Assembly (NCBI GenBank): GCA_000372785.1
Contig: KB889780.1
Span: forward strand, 1-38,684
Length of the DNA: 38,684 nt
Direction of reading: 5' to 3'
Origin: a gamma proteobacterium SCGC AB-629-P17
GTDB taxonomy: Bacteria; Pseudomonadota; Gammaproteobacteria; PS1; Pseudothioglobaceae
Position numbers and translations under genes: made by a program. Below, piece by piece: positions 18,417-26,879 of this stretch (its first letter is position 1; every line of letters starts with the position of its first letter). The notes beneath the pieces are model-generated. The model ran no database searches, was not told where the DNA came from, and saw only the letters and a list, made by a program, of their open reading frames with translations.

Positions 18417-19024
18417 TTGAAAAAAAACGGTTACTCTGTGAAGGCGCAGAGTTGATGAATATCCCGCTTTCAGATCAACAAATCCAGCAATTACTTCATT
18501 ATCTTTCACTCATTCTTAAATGGAATAGGGTCTACAACCTGAGTGCTATTCAGGATCCCATTGAGTCAGTTAAAAAGCATTTGTTAGACAGTTTATCAAT
18601 TATTCATTTTGTACAACCTGGTTTGCTATTAGATGTTGGTTCAGGTGCAGGGTTGCCAGGCATTGTAATTGCAATCATGAAACCTGAAACAGAGGTATTT
18701 GTATTAGATAGTGTAGGTAAAAAGTGCCGATTTATGCAAGTTGTAAAATCCGAATTAGCCCTTGAAAACTTAATCGTAGTAAATAGTAGAGTTGAGTCAT
18801 TTAAACCTAAGAAATCTTTTTCTCAAATTGCTTCAAGAGCTTTTGCAGAAGTAAGTAAAACAATCCAATTAACTAAACACCTTCTCGAAGAAAATGGTCG
18901 ATACTTGTTGATGAAAGGTGGTAATGTTGATGAAGAGGATATCGATAATTTGAATGTAAAGGTACATTCAATGGCGGTACCTTTTGTTTCAGACAAGCGT
19001 TCACTTTTAGAAATTCAGTTATAA
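18413..19024 (+). CDS. rsmG: 16S rRNA (guanine-527-N7) methyltransferase RsmG (GidB)
   Basis: RsmG methylates G527 of 16S rRNA using SAM. The 203-residue protein starts at GTG 18413, overlapping the mnmG stop (GTGA), so translation is probably coupled. The family core is visible: [25 protein letters not shown], the SAM-binding [17 protein letters not shown], the [10 protein letters not shown] block and the ASRAFA motif. The N-terminus is about 10 residues longer than in E. coli RsmG. An ATG at codon 15 (18455) is possible, but the overlap favours the GTG. Confidence 0.93.
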
Positions 19025-19032
19025 TTTTTGCT

Positions 19033-19803
19033 ATGCAAATTGTTGATTCTCATTGCCATATTGACCGTGTTGATTTAGATGCTTTTGGAGGTAGCATTGA
19101 ATCAATGCTGGAACATGCTGAGGGCTTATCAGTATCAAAATTTTTGTGTGTATGCATTAATTTAGAGCAATTTGATGAAGTGCACAACTTGGCATTGGAT
19201 CACCCAAGTATTTTCGCATCGGTCGGAGTTCATCCGACAGAAACAAATTGTATAGATCCAGAAGTCGATGAATTACTGGTTTACGCAAAAAGCGACAAGG
19301 TGATTGCGATTGGTGAGACTGGTCTAGATTACTTTCACATTAAAAAAGACGATGCTGACTGGCAAAGAGAACGTTTTCGTCGCCATATTTCAGCTTCAAA
19401 CAAGTCTCGTAAGCCGATGATTGTGCACATGAGAGATGCACAAAAAGATACCATTAGGATTCTATCGGAGGAAAAAGCTGAGGCAGGAGTTATGCATTGT
19501 TTTACCGCAGATTGGGAGACAGCTAAGGCCGCATTGGATCTTGGAATGTATATTTCTTTTTCTGGAATTTTGACATTCAATAGCGCAGAACCTTTGCGTG
19601 AAGTTGCAAAGAAAATTCCCGCTGATCGTCTTTTAGTTGAAACAGACTGTCCTTATTTGACGCCGATGCCTTTCCGTGGGAAGCCTAATAGTCCAGCTTA
19701 TACTTATTATGTTGTAGAAAAACTCGCTGAAATTCGAAATACCAGTATTGATGAAATGGCAGCGGTCACAACGAAAAATTTTAATCAATTATTTTTTTCG
19801 TGA
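19033..19803 (+). CDS. tatD: TatD-family metal-dependent DNase (YcfH-like)
   Basis: The 256-residue protein is a TatD-family amidohydrolase-fold hydrolase; members show 3'-5' exonuclease or deoxyribonuclease activity. Metal ligands are in the N-terminal DSHCHID, in AIGETGLDYFH (conserved Glu), in KPMIVHMRDA, in GVMHCFTAD and in the LVETDCPYLTP Asp motif near the C-terminus. Its length matches YcfH (265). It begins 8 bases after rsmG and is followed by rluC only 4 bases after its stop, so it is mid-operon. The exact substrate is not deducible. Confidence 0.9.
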   Translation: MQIVDSHCHIDRVDLDAFGGSIESMLEHAEGLSVSKFLCVCINLEQFDEVHNLALDHPSIFASVGVHPTETNCIDPEVDELLVYAKSDKVIAIGETGLDYFHIKKDDADWQRERFRRHISASNKSRKPMIVHMRDAQKDTIRILSEEKAEAGVMHCFTADWETAKAALDLGMYISFSGILTFNSAEPLREVAKKIPADRLLVETDCPYLTPMPFRGKPNSPAYTYYVVEKLAEIRNTSIDEMAAVTTKNFNQLFFS

Positions 19804-19807
19804 CTTT

Positions 19808-20731
19808 ATGACTATCCATGTCACAGCCAGACTTGTAACAGTTGATGAGTTTTCAATAGGCCAGCGGCTAGATAATTATTTGTTGAAGCAACTCAAAGGT
19901 GTTCCTAAATCTCACATTTATCGAATTATTCGTAAGGGTGAAGTGAGGGTCAATAAAGGCCGAAAAAAAGCAGATTACAAGCTGCAATTTGAAGATATTG
20001 TACGCATCCCTCCTATAAAAACTGCTTCTGAAAAAGTCATAAACCCCTCGGATAATTTAATTGATGTACTTAATCAGTCAATTCTATACGAGGACAATGG
20101 TTTGATGGTTCTTAATAAGCATCACGGCATGGCTGTACATGGTGGCAGTAATGTTAGTGTTGGTTTGGTTGAGGCTTTGAAGGCTAAATATAAACAACCA
20201 ATTGAGCTTGTTCATCGGCTTGACAGGTCCACTTCAGGATGTTTGATTTTAGCGAAAAAACGATCGACTTTAAAAGCGTTACATGAGCAACTTGTACAGC
20301 ACCAAATGGAAAAACGTTACATCGCTCTAGTCAAGAATGCTTGGAGTAAAAAACGCCATACTGTTGATGCTCCGATTTATCAAAATTCTAGATATAGTGT
20401 GATTGATGCTAAGGGAAAACAAGCAGTAAGTCATTTTCATCCGTTGAAGAATTTTCAAGAAGAGGACTTCAGCGCCTCCTTAGTTGAAGTTGTAACCGAA
20501 ACTGGTCGTACCCATCAAATTCGTGTGCATTCAAAATATGTAGACCACCCAATTGCGCATGACGATAAGTACGGTGACCACTTGTTTGATAAGGTGATGA
20601 AGGAAAAAGGGTTGAATCGACTATTTTTGCATGCCAAGTCAGTTACTTTTACAAATCCTACGACAAACGAAATTCAAAAAGTAGTTGCACCATTAGCAAT
20701 TGAACTTGAGGATTTTTTAAACAAGTTATGA
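19808..20731 (+). CDS. rluC: 23S rRNA pseudouridine synthase, RluC-like
   Basis: The protein isomerises specific uridines in 23S rRNA. The open frame reaches back to 19748 inside tatD, but ATG 19808, 4 bases after the tatD stop, gives a normal N-terminus (307 residues). An S4 RNA-binding domain spans about residues 18-70 (RLDNYLLKQL to VRIPP). The catalytic motif is HRLDRSTSG with Asp139, and the C-terminal VVTETGRTHQIRVH is the family signature. The S4 domain wording (VRVNKGRKK.DYKL) favours RluC over RluD. The last 4 bases overlap the ubiA start (ATGA). Confidence 0.9.
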   Translation: MTIHVTARLVTVDEFSIGQRLDNYLLKQLKGVPKSHIYRIIRKGEVRVNKGRKKADYKLQFEDIVRIPPIKTASEKVINPSDNLIDVLNQSILYEDNGLMVLNKHHGMAVHGGSNVSVGLVEALKAKYKQPIELVHRLDRSTSGCLILAKKRSTLKALHEQLVQHQMEKRYIALVKNAWSKKRHTVDAPIYQNSRYSVIDAKGKQAVSHFHPLKNFQEEDFSASLVEVVTETGRTHQIRVHSKYVDHPIAHDDKYGDHLFDKVMKEKGLNRLFLHAKSVTFTNPTTNEIQKVVAPLAIELEDFLNKL

Positions 20732-21570
20732 ATGCCTATTTCCGTTTAATGCGTCTTAATAAACCGATTGGTATATATTTACTTTTGTGGCCAACTTATT
20801 GGGCACTATTTTTGAGTGCTGGAGGTTGGCCCGATATTGACTTATTAATCATATTCACTTTTGGTGTAATTATTACACGTAGTGCAGGCTGTGTAATTAA
20901 CGATTATGCTGATCGCGAGATTGATAAACATATTACTCGAACTCGTGATAGACCTATTACTACAGGCGAAATTAGCCCCAAAGCAGCTTTATTATTATTT
21001 TTTGCTTTAGGATTGGCAGCTTTCGCTTTGGTGCTGTTAACCAATACACTAACCGTCAAGATCTCATTTATTGCAATAGCTCTAACTGTTTTATACCCTT
21101 TTACTAAGCGTTGGACAAATCTACCACAGTTCATTTTGGGCTTAGCGTTTGCGATGAGTGTTCCTATGGCTTTTAGCGCTCAAACCGGTACTGTACCAGC
21201 ATCAGCTGGATGGATTTTTCTCGCAACTGTGCTCTGGACGCTGGTTTACGACACCCTTTATGCAATGGCAGATAGAGATGAAGATTTAAAAATTGGAGTT
21301 AAATCAACAGCGATTTTGTTTGCAAAATACGACCAAATATTCATCACTTTACTGCAAATTTTATTAATGATTGTGTTTATAAAAATTGGAAATTTATTCG
21401 ATTTAGGGGCTTTTTATGATATTTCTTTAATAATTATTTTATTTTTTATGATTTATCATCAATTTTTGATCAAGAAGCGTCAAAAAATGGACTATTTCAA
21501 GGCTTTCATAAACAACCATTTCATTGGTATGACAGTATTTTTTGGTATTTTTCTATCTATAGCTATTTAA
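20728..21570 (+). CDS. ubiA: 4-hydroxybenzoate polyprenyltransferase
   Basis: UbiA attaches the polyprenyl chain to 4-hydroxybenzoate in ubiquinone synthesis in the inner membrane. The 280-residue protein is mostly hydrophobic with about 8-9 membrane segments. Both Asp-rich prenyl-diphosphate/Mg2+ motifs are present: NDYADREIDKHITRTRDRPI (about residues 58-77) and DTLYAMADRDEDLKIGVKSTAI (about 172-193). The N-terminus MRLNKPIGIYLLLWPTYWAL is characteristic. It starts by 4-base overlap with rluC and is the last gene of the mnmG-ubiA run. No strong terminator follows in the 85 bases before the next promoter, only a weak 5-bp hairpin near 21580-21600. Confidence 0.94.
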   Translation: MNAYFRLMRLNKPIGIYLLLWPTYWALFLSAGGWPDIDLLIIFTFGVIITRSAGCVINDYADREIDKHITRTRDRPITTGEISPKAALLLFFALGLAAFALVLLTNTLTVKISFIAIALTVLYPFTKRWTNLPQFILGLAFAMSVPMAFSAQTGTVPASAGWIFLATVLWTLVYDTLYAMADRDEDLKIGVKSTAILFAKYDQIFITLLQILLMIVFIKIGNLFDLGAFYDISLIIILFFMIYHQFLIKKRQKMDYFKAFINNHFIGMTVFFGIFLSIAI

Positions 21571-21655
21571 CGATATCTTCTGTTGTTTTTTTGCAACAAT
21601 TACGATTTTTTCTGCAAAATTTCTTCTATTTTTAGTGTTTTTTCCTCAAAAAAAC

Positions 21656-21682
21656 TTGACATGCTGATTTTGGTACTATAAA
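21656..21682 (+). promoter_or_regulatory. Promoter of the first small-protein cassette
   Basis: TTGACA (21656-21661) is a perfect -35. Downstream, TACTATAAAAAGT (21674-21686) offers -10 hexamers: TATAAA (21677-21682) at a 15-base spacing, or TACTAT preceded by TGG as an extended -10. The same arrangement with the same spacing recurs 399 bases later, so it is conserved. Which hexamer is used cannot be settled by eye. Confidence 0.65.
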
Positions 21683-21690
21683 AAGTGCAC

Positions 21691-21712
21691 CAATCAACAA
21701 ATATGTTGGTTG
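21691..21712 (+). promoter_or_regulatory. 5' leader hairpin of small-protein mRNA 1
   Basis: CAATCAACA (21691-21699) pairs with TGTTGGTTG (21704-21712), 9 bp including one G-T wobble, around an AATA loop. It sits at or within a few bases of the predicted transcript start and 16 bases before the Shine-Dalgarno. It should therefore not block ribosome binding. A 5'-terminal stem of this kind can protect a message from RNase E (known for ompA; inference here). Confidence 0.6.
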
Positions 21713-21739
21713 TCTTTTATAACTTAATGGAGAGATGTT

Positions 21740-21961
21740 ATGTTAATGGATAATGTAACTGGATGGATCAGAAAGTTAACTGAAGCGGGTGTAGCTGCGA
21801 TCGCACTTGCAGTAGTTGTACAAGTAATCTTTGGTTCTGGTGCTGCATTCCTTCCTGGGGATGTAATTGCTACCTTAACTGGTATTATTAGTTCGCTTGG
21901 TGGTGCCGGCTTAGTCGGTCTACTTGCAGCGGCCTTGTTATACAAGATCTTTACACGTTAA
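21740..21961 (+). CDS. Small hydrophobic two-helix membrane protein, copy 1 (unknown family)
   Basis: I do not recognise this 73-residue protein. An amphipathic N-terminal stretch (MLMDNVTGWIRKLTEAG) is followed by a hydrophobic segment at about 17-38 (AIALAVVVQVIF), a short FLPGD turn, and a second Gly/Ala-rich hydrophobic segment at about 42-70 with SSLGGAGLVGLLAAALL. It ends YKIFTR. There is no signal-peptide cleavage site, cysteine or histidine. GGAGAG (21729-21734) lies 5 bases before ATG 21740, so that start is preferred to the ATG two codons later. It has its own promoter, leader hairpin and terminator, so it is a monocistronic, probably highly expressed gene. It is 54/73 identical to the neighbouring copy. 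Holin-like, pilin-like, bacteriocin-like and membrane-shaping roles are all open. Confidence 0.85.
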   Translation: MLMDNVTGWIRKLTEAGVAAIALAVVVQVIFGSGAAFLPGDVIATLTGIISSLGGAGLVGLLAAALLYKIFTR

Positions 21962-21987
21962 AAGTAACATATTAACTCAATAAAAGA

Positions 21988-22010
21988 CCCGCCGAAAGGC
22001 GGGTTTTTTT
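21988..22010 (+). terminator. Terminator of small-protein gene 1
   Basis: CCCGCC-GAAA-GGCGGG (21988-22003) followed by seven T is a textbook rho-independent terminator with a GNRA-type loop. It lies 27 bases after the stop codon. Confidence 0.93.
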
Positions 22011-22054
22011 ATGTTTAATTTTAATTTTGTCTATTAATTTTCTTAATAATAAAC

Positions 22055-22081
22055 TTGACACAATGTTTTTGGTACTATAAA
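22055..22081 (+). promoter_or_regulatory. Promoter of the second small-protein cassette
   Basis: TTGACA (22055-22060) and TACTATAAAAAGT (22073-22085) repeat the first cassette's promoter at an exact 399-base offset, including the 12/15-base spacing and the TTTTGG before TACTAT. The intervening bases differ more than the boxes do, which supports the boxes being functional. Confidence 0.65.
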
Positions 22082-22089
22082 AAGTCCAC

Positions 22090-22112
22090 CAATCAACTAA
22101 ATATGTTGGTTG
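22090..22112 (+). promoter_or_regulatory. 5' leader hairpin of small-protein mRNA 2
   Basis: CAATCAAC (22090-22097) pairs with GTTGGTTG (22105-22112), 8 bp with one G-T wobble and a 7-base loop. One A-to-T change relative to copy 1 opens the top pair; the rest of the stem is unchanged. Confidence 0.6.
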
Positions 22113-22138
22113 TCTTTTACCTCTAGAGGAGAGATGTT

Positions 22139-22360
22139 ATGTTAATGGATAATATAATTGGATGGGTCAGAAAGTTAACTGAGGCAGGTGTTGCAGTAAT
22201 TGCTCTTGCAGTAGTTGTACAGATAATCTTTGGGGATGATGCTGCTTTCCTTCCTGGGGACATTCTTGGCAGCCTAATTGAAATAGTCAGTGCACTTGGT
22301 GGTGCCAACTTGGTTGGTTTAGTTGCAGCGGGCTTAATCTACAAGATATTTACACGTTAA
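22139..22360 (+). CDS. Small hydrophobic two-helix membrane protein, copy 2 (unknown family)
   Basis: This 73-residue protein is the paralogue of the gene 399 bases upstream: 54 of 73 residues identical, no gaps, and most changes conservative (V/I, A/G, L/I). Invariant parts are the head MLMDN, RKLTEAGVA, IALAVVVQ, AAFLPGD, LGGA, LVGL and the tail YKIFTR. The main non-conservative changes are SG to DD at 33-34 in the turn, G48 to Glu in the second helix, and G57 to Asn. GGAGAG (22128-22133) lies 5 bases before the ATG. It has its own promoter, leader hairpin and terminator. The pattern of change suggests both copies are under selection to stay functional (inference). Function unknown. Confidence 0.85.
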   Translation: MLMDNIIGWVRKLTEAGVAVIALAVVVQIIFGDDAAFLPGDILGSLIEIVSALGGANLVGLVAAGLIYKIFTR

Positions 22361-22386
22361 AGGTAACATATTAACTCAATAAAAAA

Positions 22387-22407
22387 CCCACCGAAAGGTG
22401 GGTTTTT
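22387..22407. terminator. Terminator of small-protein gene 2, probably bidirectional
   Basis: CCCACC-GAAA-GGTGGG (22387-22402) is flanked by six A on the left and five T on the right, so it can stop transcription from both the small gene and the convergent dapD. Compared with the terminator of copy 1, one G-C pair is replaced by A-T with the pairing kept. Confidence 0.9.
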
Positions 22408-22438
22408 CTTATAAGCTAGAGCAGTAAGTAGAGACTCT

Positions 22439-23251
22439 CTAGATGCCTCTTAATAACTCGTTGATACCAACTTTAGATCTTGTTTTTGCATCAACCTGCT
22501 TGACTATTACTGCGCAGTATAAAGAATAACTACCATCCTTTGATGGTAGGTTGCCTGATACAACCACAGAACCTGCGGGTATTCGCCCAAAAGTAACTTC
22601 ACCAGTTTCACGGTTGAAGATTTTTGTAGATTGTCCAATATAGACACCCATTGAAATGACAGCACCTTCCTCGACGATTACTCCCTCTACTACTTCTGAT
22701 CGTGCTCCAATAAAACAATTATCTTCAATAATCGTAGGATTTGCCTGTAATGGTTCCAGAACACCCCCAATACCAACACCTCCAGAAAGATGAACATTTT
22801 TACCAATCTGAGCACAGGAGCCTACAGTTGCCCAGGTATCGACCATTGCTCCAGAATCTACATATGCGCCAATATTTACATAAGATGGCATTAAAACGGT
22901 ATTTGAGGCAATATAAGACCCACGTCTTGCAGTTGCAGGCGGAACGACTCGAACACCAGCAGCTTGGAACTCTTCATTCGTAGTGTTAGCGAACTTTGAG
23001 GGAACTTTGTCATAATATTGAGTGTAACCAGCTATTGGGATGTTGTCTTCTAGCCTAAAAGAAAGTAAAACAGCCTTTTTTAACCACTCGTTAACCTGCC
23101 AATCTCCTATCCCTTTTTGTTCGGCAACTCTAGCCTTGCCAGTGTCAAGCAAATGAATCGCCTCTTCAACCGCCTGTCTAACTTCTATGTTGGCTGAATC
23201 AGGTGTGATATGGGCACGATCTTCAAAGGCCGCTTCAATAATATCTCTCAT
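22439..23251 (-). CDS. dapD: 2,3,4,5-tetrahydropyridine-2,6-dicarboxylate N-succinyltransferase
   Basis: DapD succinylates tetrahydrodipicolinate in lysine and diaminopimelate synthesis. The 270-residue length matches E. coli (274). The N-terminal helical domain carries [10 protein letters not shown] and [12 protein letters not shown]. The left-handed beta-helix follows, with hexapeptide repeats such as [28 protein letters not shown] and the family block [14 protein letters not shown]. The C-terminus [11 protein letters not shown]...INELLRGI is typical. It lies 58 bases downstream of znuC on the same strand, so they may share a transcript. The bidirectional terminator at 22387-22407 ends it. 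No clear Shine-Dalgarno precedes ATG 23251. Confidence 0.95.
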
Positions 23252-23309
23252 AATTTTGTCAATAAAAAAAAAGGCCTAATTATATCAGTCAGAACAGTTT
23301 GAGTCTTAT

Positions 23310-24029
23310 CTAATGTTCATGGTGGTGGTTATGATGATGCTCATAAGTAGCCATTAGTTCATGTATTTGATCAGCAAATAAATCATTAAATTGTTCATCT
23401 TTTAGAATCGATTCTGGAAGCCCTTCACAACAAATATGGTGATATAGGCATAGAACTTGGGTGGACTCTTTCATTACTCGGTGAAGATCATGAGAAACCA
23501 TTAACACGGCGCATTTTTGTTTTTGATGAATCTCTTGGATCAATTTGTATAATTGCATCTGTCCATCTACATCAAGATTTTGTGCCGGCTCATCCAATAT
23601 AAGTACGTTTGGTTTGTTAAGCAAGGCTCGTGTTAGTAGTACTTTTTGTAATTCACCTCCTGAGAGATTTTTTAAGGGTGAATTTAGTAAATCTTTGATA
23701 CCTGTAAGTTCAGATGTTTGATTGGTAAAGTTTTTATCTGTCTTTTGGTTGAGTGTCAAAAAATCGACAACTGATATTGGAATAAAAGGGTTTGCAGTAA
23801 ATGATTGAGGGGTATAGCCTAAACGAACATTATTACTATGGTTCACTTTGCCACTATCCTGTTTAATAATCCCTAATAGAACTTTAATCAAGGAACTCTT
23901 TCCAGCTCCATTAGGACCAATCAAGGTAATGAACTCTCCAGGATGAAGTTTCAGACTAACATCATCTAAGATATTTTTACCGTTATGATTGAGTGAAATA
24001 TTGTCAGCGGTAATGAGTGCATCAGACAT
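23310..24029 (-). CDS. znuC: Zinc ABC transporter ATP-binding protein
   Basis: This 239-residue ABC ATPase probably powers high-affinity zinc uptake. The Walker A motif is GPNGAGKSS (about residue 38), the signature is LSGGELQK, Walker B is VLILDEPAQNLD, and the switch His is in MVSHDLHRV. The CLYHHICCEG segment and the His-rich tail YEHHHNHHHEH are typical of ZnuC and suggest metal binding. The permease (znuB) and binding protein (znuA) are not adjacent: dapD lies downstream and polA is divergent upstream. They must be elsewhere or replaced. A manganese or other metal ABC system is the main alternative. An imperfect inverted repeat (24064-24093) lies just upstream. Confidence 0.85.
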   Translation of the reverse strand: MSDALITADNISLNHNGKNILDDVSLKLHPGEFITLIGPNGAGKSSLIKVLLGIIKQDSGKVNHSNNVRLGYTPQSFTANPFIPISVVDFLTLNQKTDKNFTNQTSELTGIKDLLNSPLKNLSGGELQKVLLTRALLNKPNVLILDEPAQNLDVDGQMQLYKLIQEIHQKQKCAVLMVSHDLHRVMKESTQVLCLYHHICCEGLPESILKDEQFNDLFADQIHELMATYEHHHNHHHEH

Positions 24030-24063
24030 ACTAATATTTTATCTAACAATCATCAACAAGGCA

Positions 24064-24093
24064 GAATAATATAAGACTAAGCTTATGTTTTTC
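24064..24093. promoter_or_regulatory. Imperfect inverted repeat upstream of znuC, candidate operator
   Basis: GAATAATATAAG (24064-24075) and CTTATGTTTTTC (24082-24093) pair at 10 of 12 positions around a 6-base centre. It is 35 bases upstream of the znuC start and 50 bases upstream of polA. A metal-responsive repressor such as Zur is the obvious guess, but spacing differs from the canonical 23-base Zur box. Confidence 0.35.
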
Positions 24094-24143
24094 AAAAGTC
24101 AGTTTGGCATAAAAAAAGCCGAGATTAGATGTAAAATTCTTGC

Positions 24144-26879
24144 ATGGCTCAGCAACTCATTTTAGTCGACGGTTCGGCATACTTGTTTCGTTCATACTTC
24201 TCGACCCTATCACAAAATTTAAGTAATGATAAAGGCTTTCCAACGGGCGCAATGTTTGGTGTTATTAATGCCATTAAACATTTACAAAGACAATATAAAG
24301 GTGCCAAACTGATTATGGTTTTTGATTCCAAGGGGTCAAATTTTCGTCATCAAATTTATCCACAATATAAAGCCAATAGGAAACCCGCGGATGAGTTGAT
24401 GATTGTTCAAATCGAACCTCTATATCAAATCATTAAAGCTATGGGTTTTCATTTTATTTGTGAAGAAGGGGTTGAAGCAGACGATGTTATAGCAACATTA
24501 GCTAAACTAGCACATGAAAAAAATATTGAAACCATCATAGCGAGTAGTGACAAAGACCTCTTTCAATTAGTAGGTGGTCATATCAAGCAACTTAATATGA
24601 AGGGTAAGCTTTATGACGCAGAAATGGTGAAAGAAAAAATGGGTGTTAGGCCACACCAAGTTCTAGACCTGTTAGCTTTGACGGGCGATGCTTCAGACAA
24701 TATACCTGGCGTACCAAGTGTAGGCCCAAAAACGGCTACGAAATGGTTGCAGCTTTATGGAGATATAGAGGGTGTTAAAGCTAATGCTAACAAAATAGAA
24801 GGCAAGGTTGGTGAAAAGCTAAGAGAGTCATTTGACTTGTTAGATCTTTCTTATCAATTAGCTCAACTTAAGTTTGATGTTGATTTGCCTTTTAATGTCT
24901 TTGATGATGAGCCAGGAGAAAATACTGAAGAATTGATTGAATTGTATAAAGAATACGGTTTTTCTATGTGGCTAAAGCAATTAGCTGATCAAGTAAAAGA
25001 GCCACCAATAACTGAGACAATCGAACCTTTAGTGAGTGAGAGTCAAGATCAAAAGAGTACATTACTTCTTAAGGAGTTTACGCAAACACTAATTCTTGCA
25101 CAAGCTGATTTTGATTCCTTACTGCGACAGTTAACAAATTGTAAATCCTTTGTTTTTGACTTGGAAACCAATAGTCTAGACTATATGAATGCAGAGATTG
25201 TTGGGCTAGTATTTTTACTAGATAAGCAAAGTTACTATGTACCAGTTGCACACGATTACTTAGATGCTCCTGAACAATTGTCTCGACAATCTGTAATGGA
25301 ATCATTAAAGCCTATTCTTGAGAGTCAAGTGATTGGTAAGATTGGTCAAAATTTAAAATATGACGCCCATGTACTAGCAAATATAGGTGTTGATTTGAAC
25401 GGTATTGTTGATGATACTATGATCAAATCATACTGCTTAAATTCGGTGGCGACACGTCACAACATGGATGATTTATCAGAGCACTATCTTGGTCATAAAA
25501 CAATTCATTATGCTGATGTAGCAGGAAGTGGAAAAAAACAATTGACCTTCAATCAGGTAAATATAGATGAAGCATTTCCTTACGCCTGTGAAGATGTTAT
25601 TGTCACTTCTGAGTTAAATAAAATCCTAGAATCCAAGTTACAACAATATCCAAAACTAATGACGCTGTATCGGACCTTAGAGCTTCCTCTAATGGATATT
25701 ATGCTAAAGCTGGAACGAAATGGCGCATTTGTTGATGAGGTTTCACTCTTCGATCAACAGATGCAAATTAAGTCTGAAATGCAGGAGATTCAAAGTCAAG
25801 CTTTCGAAATAGCAGGAGATGAGTTTAATCTTGAATCACCCAAGCAAATCCAACAAATTTTGTTTAGTGAAGAAGGGTTGGGCCTCAAACCGAAGAAGAA
25901 AACAGCTAAGGGTCAACCGTCAACAAATGAGGAGGCGCTAAAACTATTGGAACACCCATTGGTTGATTTAATAATGTCTTATCGGACACTAACTAAACTG
26001 AATTCTACCTATTTAGAAGCTTTGCCAAAGCAAATAAATAGACAAACAGGCCGCTTGCACACTTCGTATCATCAAGCAGTAACTGCAACGGGAAGGCTTT
26101 CTTCTTCAAAACCTAATTTTCAAAATATCCCGATCAGAACGGAACAGGGTGCACAGATCCGATCAGCGTTTGTTTCAGGTGAGGGTAATGTTATTGTGGC
26201 TGCTGACTATTCTCAAATCGAGTTGAGGATTATGGCGCATATTTCTGAAGATAAAAACTTAATTGAGGCTTTTCGTAATAATGTAGATGTGCATCGCTCT
26301 ACTGCTTCCCAGGTATTTGATACTGAGCTTACGAAGGTAACAAAGGAGCAGCGTAGAAAAGCTAAGGCAATTAACTTTGGTCTGATTTACGGAATGAGTG
26401 CATTTGGTTTAGCAAAACAAATTGATGTTTCTCGAACTGAAGCTAAACAATATATTGACGGTTATTTTGAAAACTATCCGGGTGTTTTGAAGTTTATGGA
26501 TGAAACAAAAGAAAAGGCTAAATCACGAGGCTTTGTTGAAACTATCTTGGGCAGACGGTTATATTTACCTCAGATTAATGCTAAAAATAAAATGCTTCAA
26601 CAGCATGCATTAAGAACAGCGATTAATGCACCTATGCAGGGTTCATCTGCCGATATTATAAAAAAAGCAATGTTGGATATTCAAGCCTGGATTGATAGAG
26701 AAGATAATGGTATTAAGATGATTATGCAAGTGCATGATGAGCTTGTCTTTGAAGTTCAAGCTGAAAAATCAAAAGAGTATGCTGAAAATTTAAGATCTTT
26801 GATGGCAGAGGCTTTAAAGTTAAGTATCCCTTTAGTTGTTGATGTAGGAATAGGATCAAATTGGCAAGAAGCTCATTAG
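24144..26879 (+). CDS. polA: DNA polymerase I
   Basis: Pol I fills gaps and removes RNA primers in replication and repair. The 911-residue protein has all three activities. The 5'-nuclease domain (about 1-290) carries LILVDGSAYLFRSYF, EGVEADDVIATL, SSDKDLFQLV and GDASDNIPGVP. The 3'-5' exonuclease domain (about 320-520) keeps the metal ligands FDLETNSLD, KYDAHVLAN and YACEDVIVT, so proofreading should be active. The polymerase domain has ADYSQIELR, RRKAKAINFGLIYGMSAFGLA and QVHDELVFEV. The ATG at 24144 is preceded by TGTAAAATTC with no Shine-Dalgarno. If that is the -10, the leader would be extremely short. The next gene, argS, is 54 bases away. Confidence 0.97.
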   Translation: MAQQLILVDGSAYLFRSYFSTLSQNLSNDKGFPTGAMFGVINAIKHLQRQYKGAKLIMVFDSKGSNFRHQIYPQYKANRKPADELMIVQIEPLYQIIKAMGFHFICEEGVEADDVIATLAKLAHEKNIETIIASSDKDLFQLVGGHIKQLNMKGKLYDAEMVKEKMGVRPHQVLDLLALTGDASDNIPGVPSVGPKTATKWLQLYGDIEGVKANANKIEGKVGEKLRESFDLLDLSYQLAQLKFDVDLPFNVFDDEPGENTEELIELYKEYGFSMWLKQLADQVKEPPITETIEPLVSESQDQKSTLLLKEFTQTLILAQADFDSLLRQLTNCKSFVFDLETNSLDYMNAEIVGLVFLLDKQSYYVPVAHDYLDAPEQLSRQSVMESLKPILESQVIGKIGQNLKYDAHVLANIGVDLNGIVDDTMIKSYCLNSVATRHNMDDLSEHYLGHKTIHYADVAGSGKKQLTFNQVNIDEAFPYACEDVIVTSELNKILESKLQQYPKLMTLYRTLELPLMDIMLKLERNGAFVDEVSLFDQQMQIKSEMQEIQSQAFEIAGDEFNLESPKQIQQILFSEEGLGLKPKKKTAKGQPSTNEEALKLLEHPLVDLIMSYRTLTKLNSTYLEALPKQINRQTGRLHTSYHQAVTATGRLSSSKPNFQNIPIRTEQGAQIRSAFVSGEGNVIVAADYSQIELRIMAHISEDKNLIEAFRNNVDVHRSTASQVFDTELTKVTKEQRRKAKAINFGLIYGMSAFGLAKQIDVSRTEAKQYIDGYFENYPGVLKFMDETKEKAKSRGFVETILGRRLYLPQINAKNKMLQQHALRTAINAPMQGSSADIIKKAMLDIQAWIDREDNGIKMIMQVHDELVFEVQAEKSKEYAENLRSLMAEALKLSIPLVVDVGIGSNWQEAH

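What the first reader, a model, noticed from the sequence alone, without database searches (positions are those of the whole stretch)
21653..22410. Tandem pair of unrecognised 73-residue two-helix membrane proteins, each in its own complete cassette
Two cassettes lie between ubiA and dapD at an exact 399-base offset. Each has a TTGACA promoter, leader hairpin, strong Shine-Dalgarno, 73-codon gene and GC-rich terminator. The proteins are 54/73 identical with mostly conservative changes, and the offset holds from -35 to terminator with no net insertion or deletion. Independent signals on both copies imply strong separate expression rather than an operon. I recognise no family: no signal peptide, Cys, His or conserved buried acid, only an amphipathic head, two hydrophobic segments and a fixed FLPGD turn. 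It could be a major membrane component, a holin-like or membrane-shaping protein, or a leaderless peptide.
Basis: partly seen in the sequence, partly recalled or inferred. Interest (0 to 1): 0.75.

Follow-up and report, generated by a model that had tools for sequence, protein, structure and literature searches.

The report
Membrane hairpin shared by bacteria, phages
Two neighbouring small genes in a marine sulfur-oxidising bacterium encode an unnamed family of tiny predicted membrane proteins that uncultured phages also carry, each copy with its own signals, which suggests that cells and their viruses both use it; what it does is not yet known.

Summary
Two 399-bp cassettes between ubiA and dapD each carry TTGACA, a leader hairpin, Shine-Dalgarno, a 73-codon gene and a terminator. 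No Pfam, NCBIfam, PHROG, PADLOC, PDB or Foldseek match reached significance. The host is SUP05 / Candidatus Thioglobus: 49 of 83 family genomes have the gene, single in other genera, mostly two tandem copies in this one; ubiA precedes it in 42 of 43 named loci. The genes are under purifying selection (dN/dS about 0.16) and the leader hairpin covaries.

Main addition: relatives are encoded on 225 IMG/VR viral contigs. In the 80 examined they sit beside 16 upstream and 10 downstream gene families (terminase, tail sheath, translational repressor, Hsp20, nrdA/nrdB), with their own promoter signals (T4-late box in 16 of 43 distinct upstreams) and, in 51 of 80, another covarying hairpin. 32 of 35 distinct viral proteins form one clade among SUP05 sequences (moderate support), suggesting host-to-phage capture. 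Distant relatives in other proteobacteria are again mostly tandem pairs.

Best reading: an abundant inner-membrane helical hairpin, self-assembling and membrane-modulating, constitutive in cells and late in phages (inferred). Holin-like action is the closest analogy; membership of a holin family is not shown.

The parts
21656..21682 (+). promoter of copy 1: TTGACA (21656-21661), 15-nt spacer, TATAAA (21677-21682)
   Evidence: read from sequence; TTGACA in 57 of 57 SUP05-family copies; not reported by a 16-18-nt consensus scan
21691..21712 (+). leader hairpin of copy 1
   Evidence: conserved 7-bp stem with compensatory changes in 19 chosen leaders
21729..21734 (+). Shine-Dalgarno GGAGAG of copy 1
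   Evidence: read from sequence; GGAGA invariant in alignment A4
21740..21961 (+). copy 1 gene (type A), 73 aa
   Evidence: homologues; dN/dS of A orthologues 0.157
21982..22009 (+). terminator of copy 1
22055..22081 (+). promoter of copy 2: TTGACA (22055-22060), 15-nt spacer, TATAAA
   Evidence: read from sequence; not reported by the consensus scan
22090..22112 (+). leader hairpin of copy 2 (loop one base longer)
   Evidence: alignment A4
22128..22133 (+). Shine-Dalgarno GGAGAG of copy 2
   Evidence: read from sequence
22139..22360 (+). copy 2 gene (type B), 73 aa
   Evidence: B orthologues dN/dS 0.167
22383..22406 (+). terminator of copy 2
   Evidence: read from sequence, not listed by the scan; the 55 bases after the coding part are 89% identical to copy 1

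Best explanation
The two genes are tandem paralogues (types A and B) of an unnamed family of about 73-residue inner-membrane proteins that fold as a helical hairpin: an amphipathic head running into a first membrane helix, a periplasmic turn (F..GD), a short helix and a second membrane segment with an LG..GLVGL motif, with both ends in the cytoplasm. Each gene is a self-contained high-output unit: promoter, 5' hairpin that probably protects the mRNA, strong ribosome site, terminator. The protein most likely acts without enzymatic chemistry, by packing through its glycine/alanine-rich faces into oligomers that alter or support the inner membrane. SUP05-type cells make it constitutively; phages captured it, mostly from the SUP05 side, and express it as an independent, often late gene, where membrane control (lysis timing or envelope stability) is the most plausible use. 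Shown by computation: genes, family, locus, cassettes, covarying leaders, phage copies, purifying selection. Inferred: membrane topology, abundance, timing, oligomerisation, membrane effect, direction of capture. Within this statement I give about 0.35 to a membrane-integrity or permeability role.
For: Conserved between ubiA and dapD: 49 of 83 SUP05-family genomes have the gene; ubiA is directly upstream in 42 of 43 named family loci, the other is cut at a contig end (flank names). In the window's genus 25 of 29 genomes have it: 20 with two copies, 1 with three, 4 with one. A and B fall in separate clades (83/87 and 82/89, below the tool's starred level). Purifying selection. Leaders and terminators are more alike within a genome than A and B across genomes (0.83 v 0.76; 0.83 v 0.78). 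Leader stem: 97.7% of cells paired, covariation score 0.301 v 0.220, 0 of 500 shuffles as high. Viral relatives: 225 of 298 pattern-matched IMG/VR stretches; in 80 loci, 16 upstream and 10 downstream gene families, falling into six groups that share no neighbour; exact TATAAATA in 16 of 43 distinct upstreams v 1.7% of 4450 background windows; own covarying hairpin. 32 of 35 distinct viral proteins in one clade (94/96) among SUP05-type sequences (99/76). Model pLDDT 91.2, helices 2-31, 42-55, 58-72. Turn neutral or acidic in 49 of 49, C-terminus net positive in 45 of 49.
Against: No expression, proteomic or functional data. pTM is only 0.64 and no oligomer was modelled. 34 of 83 family genomes lack a match, and two matches (G065, G069) have an internal stop, so it is dispensable. 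The tree rests on 73 columns with 24 open forks; neither the viral clade nor the fork that places it among SUP05 rows is starred, and starred branches alone do not fix the direction of transfer. The L118 group lies outside the main viral clade. In the covariation tests two of five measures are not beyond shuffles (pairs with double changes 179 of 500, further pair types 259 of 500 for the host leaders; 323 and 458 of 500 for the viral ones). 27 of 43 viral upstreams lack an exact late box and 29 of 80 loci lack the viral hairpin motif. Phage hosts are unknown; four of the 15 viral loci scanned carry a tmRNA marked as permuted, a kind reported from a phage of another host, so they need not infect SUP05.
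Confidence: 0.45

Rival explanations
1. It is a class II-type holin or antiholin of phages that was domesticated by SUP05 bacteria, or a host protein that phages turned into a holin.
For: Size, two hydrophobic segments, predicted N-in/C-in and glycine-rich second segment fit class II holins (features recalled). In 17 of 80 viral loci it lies just before terminase, and in the two of these read by eye (L161, L156) small membrane-type proteins precede it, a common place for lysis genes (recalled). Late box in 16 of 43 viral upstreams.
Against: No holin match in PHROGs or Pfam. No lysis gene was recognised among the neighbours annotated, though lysis genes were not searched for systematically. Cells keep it under purifying selection at a fixed locus. 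Viral copies appear nested among cellular ones, with moderate support.
Confidence: 0.22
2. Auxiliary-gene reading: it is a physiological membrane component of the host (as high-light-inducible proteins are for cyanobacteria) that phages supply during infection.
For: Shared by cells and phages, tandem copies in cells, stand-alone gene in phages, strong signals.
Against: No functional partner genes seen beside it; rare outside a few lineages (8 of 369 sampled gammaproteobacterial genomes at E 1e-4, two of them of this family); missing from 12 of 12 genus-g5 and 11 of 12 genus-g8 genomes; late boxes rather than early signals.
Confidence: 0.2
3. Conflict reading: the cellular copies protect against phages (for example as exclusion proteins or small membrane effectors) and the phage copies interfere with them or exclude rivals.
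For: Patchy retention; in two gene-lacking genomes (G067, G051) ubiA and dapD are only about 165 and under 10 bases apart, without a remnant; several copies; phage copies probably derived from cellular ones.
Against: No PADLOC match; late boxes are unusual for exclusion genes (recalled); fixed chromosomal locus rather than a variable island. In the other 9 gene-lacking loci with ubiA the junction is not tight or dapD is not within the stretch held.
Confidence: 0.12
4. Leaderless bacteriocin or conjugative (type IV secretion) pilin.
For: Small, hydrophobic; weak partial Pfam T4SS_pilin matches for two distant members (E 0.0076 and 0.12, below cut-off).
Against: Host neighbours are ubiA and dapD, not export, immunity or conjugation genes; the protein starts directly at the amphipathic head, whereas such pilins have a signal peptide (recalled); phage carriage.
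Confidence: 0.03

Closest known systems
Class II holins such as the phage 21 pinholin (recalled)
   Same: about 70 residues, two hydrophobic segments, predicted N-in/C-in, glycine-rich second segment, late box in many phage copies
   Different: no sequence or profile match; conserved chromosomal gene; stand-alone at varied loci; tandem paralogues in cells
Cyanobacterial and cyanophage high-light-inducible proteins (recalled)
   Same: small membrane proteins shared by phages and hosts, several copies in hosts
   Different: two hydrophobic segments, no such family in the scans, sulfur-oxidising rather than photosynthetic hosts
Phage morons (recalled)
   Same: single gene with its own signals between phage genes
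   Different: often with T4-late boxes; also a conserved gene of bacteria; empty sites not examined
T4 Imm superinfection immunity protein (recalled)
   Same: about 80 residues, two membrane segments, phage-encoded
   Different: no PHROG match; Imm is an early gene, this one often has late boxes

Membership tests
Any curated family (Pfam, NCBIfam, PHROGs, PADLOC) | profile match above the curated cut-off or with a clearly significant E-value | tested here: not met
   best E 0.0013 (L208, matching mainly its long extra tail), next 0.0031 and 0.0037; all Pfam and NCBIfam hits below cut-off. NCBIfam was tried with the two window proteins only, PADLOC with 8 proteins
Known solved or viral predicted fold | sequence-profile or Foldseek match | tested here: not met
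Class II holin | two membrane segments, both ends in the cytoplasm | tested here: inconclusive
   AlphaFold2 helices and charge pattern agree; topology not measured
Class II holin | homology to a known holin family | tested here: not met
   no holin PHROG or Pfam match
Class II holin | place in a lysis cassette | tested here: inconclusive
   just before terminase in 17 of 80 viral loci, elsewhere in the rest; lysis genes not searched systematically
Class II holin | triggers lysis with an endolysin | not testable with these tools
   needs an assay
Phage moron | stand-alone gene with own promoter and terminator at a place where relatives lack it | tested here: inconclusive
   own promoter signals and hairpin in many loci, varied places; viral terminators not counted, empty sites not examined
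T4SS pilin (VirB2 type) | cleaved signal peptide and conjugation genes | tested here: not met
   no signal peptide seen in the sequence; neighbours are ubiA and dapD
High-light-inducible protein | match to that family | tested here: not met
   no such family in the Pfam and NCBIfam scans of the window proteins

The most novel reading that the evidence does not exclude
A new class of membrane effector shared by bacteria and their viruses: a two-subunit (A/B) helical-hairpin system, made in quantity by SUP05-type cells, whose gene was captured by phages, moved between unrelated places in their genomes as a self-contained late gene, and now serves to take over or block the host's own membrane assembly at the end of infection.
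Probability: 0.2. Interest if true: 0.85.

Novelty: new variant of a known kind. Interest (0 to 1): 0.6.

Why it matters
SUP05 bacteria and their phages matter for sulfur cycling in low-oxygen seas (recalled; passages of PMC4164917). An uncharacterised small protein kept at one chromosomal locus, and found again on 225 viral contigs with its own expression signals, is probably important to infection or to membrane physiology there. It gives a compact, testable target: one 73-residue protein, in two natural forms, that can be expressed in laboratory E. coli.

Tried and rejected
Rejected: (1) artefact or chance ORF: purifying selection, 49 of 83 genomes and covarying leaders speak against it. 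(2) Known family: no significant match in the scans made. (3) The antisense ORF of 73 codons (21724-21945, minus) as the true gene: the plus-strand frame is the one conserved. (4) Known RNA family: in window 19000-25000 ten hits, all below gathering score; at gathering score nothing at the leaders of 11 relatives (only two tmRNAs).

Led nowhere: tblastn of P0001 and of the L118 protein against INPHARED gave no match, but BLAST's low-complexity filter may mask such sequences; a tblastn-confirmed scan of IMG/VR with P0001 alone found none, the alignment found 225. DNA searches with viral loci against INPHARED gave nothing or matches only in flanking genes among the rows listed. Paper searches return capped listings; no listed title concerned this family, and I saw passages only of PMC4164917 and PMC9004378. 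The library is open-access only, so absence in print is not shown. A phylum sample gave 1 of 398, the own genome.

Limits of counts: only the best 80 of 225 viral relatives were fetched. The tree used distinct proteins of at least 66 aa without X (103 rows). Leader alignments are hand-picked: A4 has 19 of 58 distinct host leaders (the AACCAAC..GTTGGGG type of other genera left out), A5 has 21 leaders (20 distinct) from the 80 viral loci. dN/dS medians use only pairs of equal length with dS between 0.1 and 2. A regex scan for the viral motif gave 3 hits and was replaced by the scan; I did not find out why the first missed most.

Full report
What is there. The window holds two 73-codon genes in tandem between ubiA (TIGR01474, above cut-off) and dapD (TIGR00965, above cut-off). 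At an offset of 399 bases the two units are 78.8% identical over 359 bases, against 33.7% for the next best offset tried. Each has TTGACA, an AT-rich second box at a short 15-base spacing, a hairpin, GGAGAG and a GC-rich hairpin with T run.

Who has it. The window lies in a 1.42-Mb draft genome whose relatives are named Candidatus Thioglobus / SUP05. In the family 49 of 83 genomes have a match. In the window's genus 25 of 29 have it, 20 with two copies, one with three and four with one; in the other genera 24 of 54 have it, with one match each. Two of these have an internal stop (G065, G069) and some are cut by contig ends. Fifteen gene-lacking genomes were searched for ubiA: 11 have a clear one, two only a distant prenyltransferase, two none. 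Of the 11 loci none shows a remnant by tblastn below E 0.9; ubiA and dapD are about 165 and under 10 bases apart in two (L215, L216), roughly 0.5-1.3 kb apart in four (L220, L222, L223, L225), and dapD is not within the stretch held in five. In 42 of 43 named family loci ubiA lies directly upstream of the gene; the last is cut by a contig end.

Selection and history. A and B orthologues have median dN/dS 0.157 (45 pairs) and 0.167 (62 pairs) in 18 two-copy genomes; A against B in the window has dN 0.148 and dS 0.600. In the tree A and B are separate clades (83/87, 82/89), which suggests that the duplication is older than the species compared, though neither fork is starred. Leaders and terminators are more alike within a genome (0.83, 0.83) than between A and B of different genomes (0.76, 0.78), while the coding thirds show little of this (0.75, 0.70, 0.65 v 0.73, 0.69, 0.64). 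This fits conversion or selection that keeps both copies under the same signals.

Leader RNA. In 19 chosen host leaders a 7-bp stem is kept in 97.7% of cells, with 8 double-sided changes at two pairs; the covariation score is 0.301 against 0.220 (sd 0.024) in shuffles, 0 of 500 as high, whereas the number of pairs with double changes (179 of 500) and of pair types (259 of 500) is not beyond shuffles. The stem starts shortly after the predicted start of transcription. A 5' hairpin that slows mRNA decay is the simplest reading (inference). No Rfam family reaches its gathering score there.

Phage copies. With the 19-row alignment, 225 of 298 pattern-matched stretches of IMG/VR encode a relative, and 80 were fetched. 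The contigs read are genuine phage: neighbours annotated include terminase large subunit, tail sheath, a translation repressor (RegA type, name recalled), Hsp20 and HNH endonuclease and class Ia ribonucleotide reductase subunits. Across the 80 loci the gene follows 16 and precedes 10 different gene families, in six groups that share no neighbour (30, 24, 17, 7, 1 and 1 loci); it starts 59-230 bases after the upstream gene in 74 of 77 loci with a usable one. Of 43 distinct upstream stretches 16 hold an exact T4-late box TATAAATA (1.7% of 4450 background windows do) and 9 hold a sigma-70-like pair. In 51 of 80 loci a hairpin with a Y-GNRA-N loop followed by AAACTA lies before the gene; in 21 chosen leaders 97.5% of cells pair against 68.9% in shuffles and the covariation score is 0.733 against 0.247, 0 of 500 as high, though pairs with double changes (323 of 500) and pair types (458 of 500) are not beyond shuffles. 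The motif occurs 7 times elsewhere in the same loci, of which two look like true leaders of other genes (L138:3909, L188:5135), so it is not exclusive to this gene. 32 of 35 distinct viral proteins form a clade (94/96) inside a group of SUP05-family sequences (99/76); the three of the L118 group stand apart (100/91). With 73 columns the deep forks are weak, and host-to-phage capture is a suggestion, not a proof.

Wider family. Other relatives are in Opitutales, Oceanospirillaceae and Rhodospirillaceae. A broad profile finds 8 of 369 sampled gammaproteobacterial genomes, two of them of the SUP05 family; five of the other six have two adjacent, dissimilar copies (G113, G184, G300, G363, G420). 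The Rhodospirillaceae-type loci L105, L106, L108 and L110 have a diverged second copy next to the first (read by eye; three of the four aligned). Pairs are thus a recurrent state, which hints at two cooperating subunits.

Protein. AlphaFold2 gives a confident monomer (pLDDT 91.2, pTM 0.64) with helices 2-31, 42-55 and 58-72; no similar fold was found. F37, G54, L58, V59, G60 and L61 are invariant in 49 rows, Q28 (45) and D41 (43) nearly so; the turn is neutral or acidic in 49 of 49 and the C-terminus net positive in 45 of 49, which suggests both ends inside. I see no likely active site.

How it probably works. No evident catalytic residues, a glycine-rich packing surface, two natural subunits, strong expression signals and reuse by phages with late boxes point to a self-assembling inner-membrane protein that changes or supports the membrane. 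I put this general statement at 0.45. Holin-type action, supply of a host component, and a role in phage-host conflict remain open rivals at 0.22, 0.2 and 0.12.

Novelty. The family has no name in the libraries searched, and no paper on it appeared in the listings of the searches named above. Small membrane proteins shared between phages and hosts are a known kind of thing, so I call it a new variant of a known kind, of above-average interest because of its spread, its independent cassettes and its easy testability.

Noticed in passing
L128:6372-6681, L181:6290-6598, L144:6492-6802, L124:4105-4437: Uncultured phage contigs carry a tmRNA marked as permuted (RF04321 in L128 and L181; ARAGORN tags ANANTYSLAA and ANANTYAIAA in four of 15 viral loci scanned) downstream of the 73-aa gene; in L128 this lies between nrdA and nrdB. 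Permuted phage tmRNA is already reported for Melnitz-like phages (PMC9004378, passages).
   Followed up: partly
L003:3535-3645 (own genome, contig C57): A near copy (90% over 94 bases) of the upstream and promoter region of copy 1 stands before an unrelated 62-residue gene without NCBIfam match; 92-94% identical copies of that stretch are in G022, G016 and G009.
   Followed up: partly
L138:3909, L188:5135: The phage leader hairpin with AAACTA also precedes other phage genes, so it may be a more general leader of these phages.
   Followed up: no
L113:5329-5886: A phage gene matching the first part of RelA/SpoT lies just upstream of the 73-aa gene.
   Followed up: no
L118:650-4910: The L118 contig group carries genes that look like GTP cyclohydrolase and queuosine-type biosynthesis beside this gene (read by eye).
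   Followed up: no
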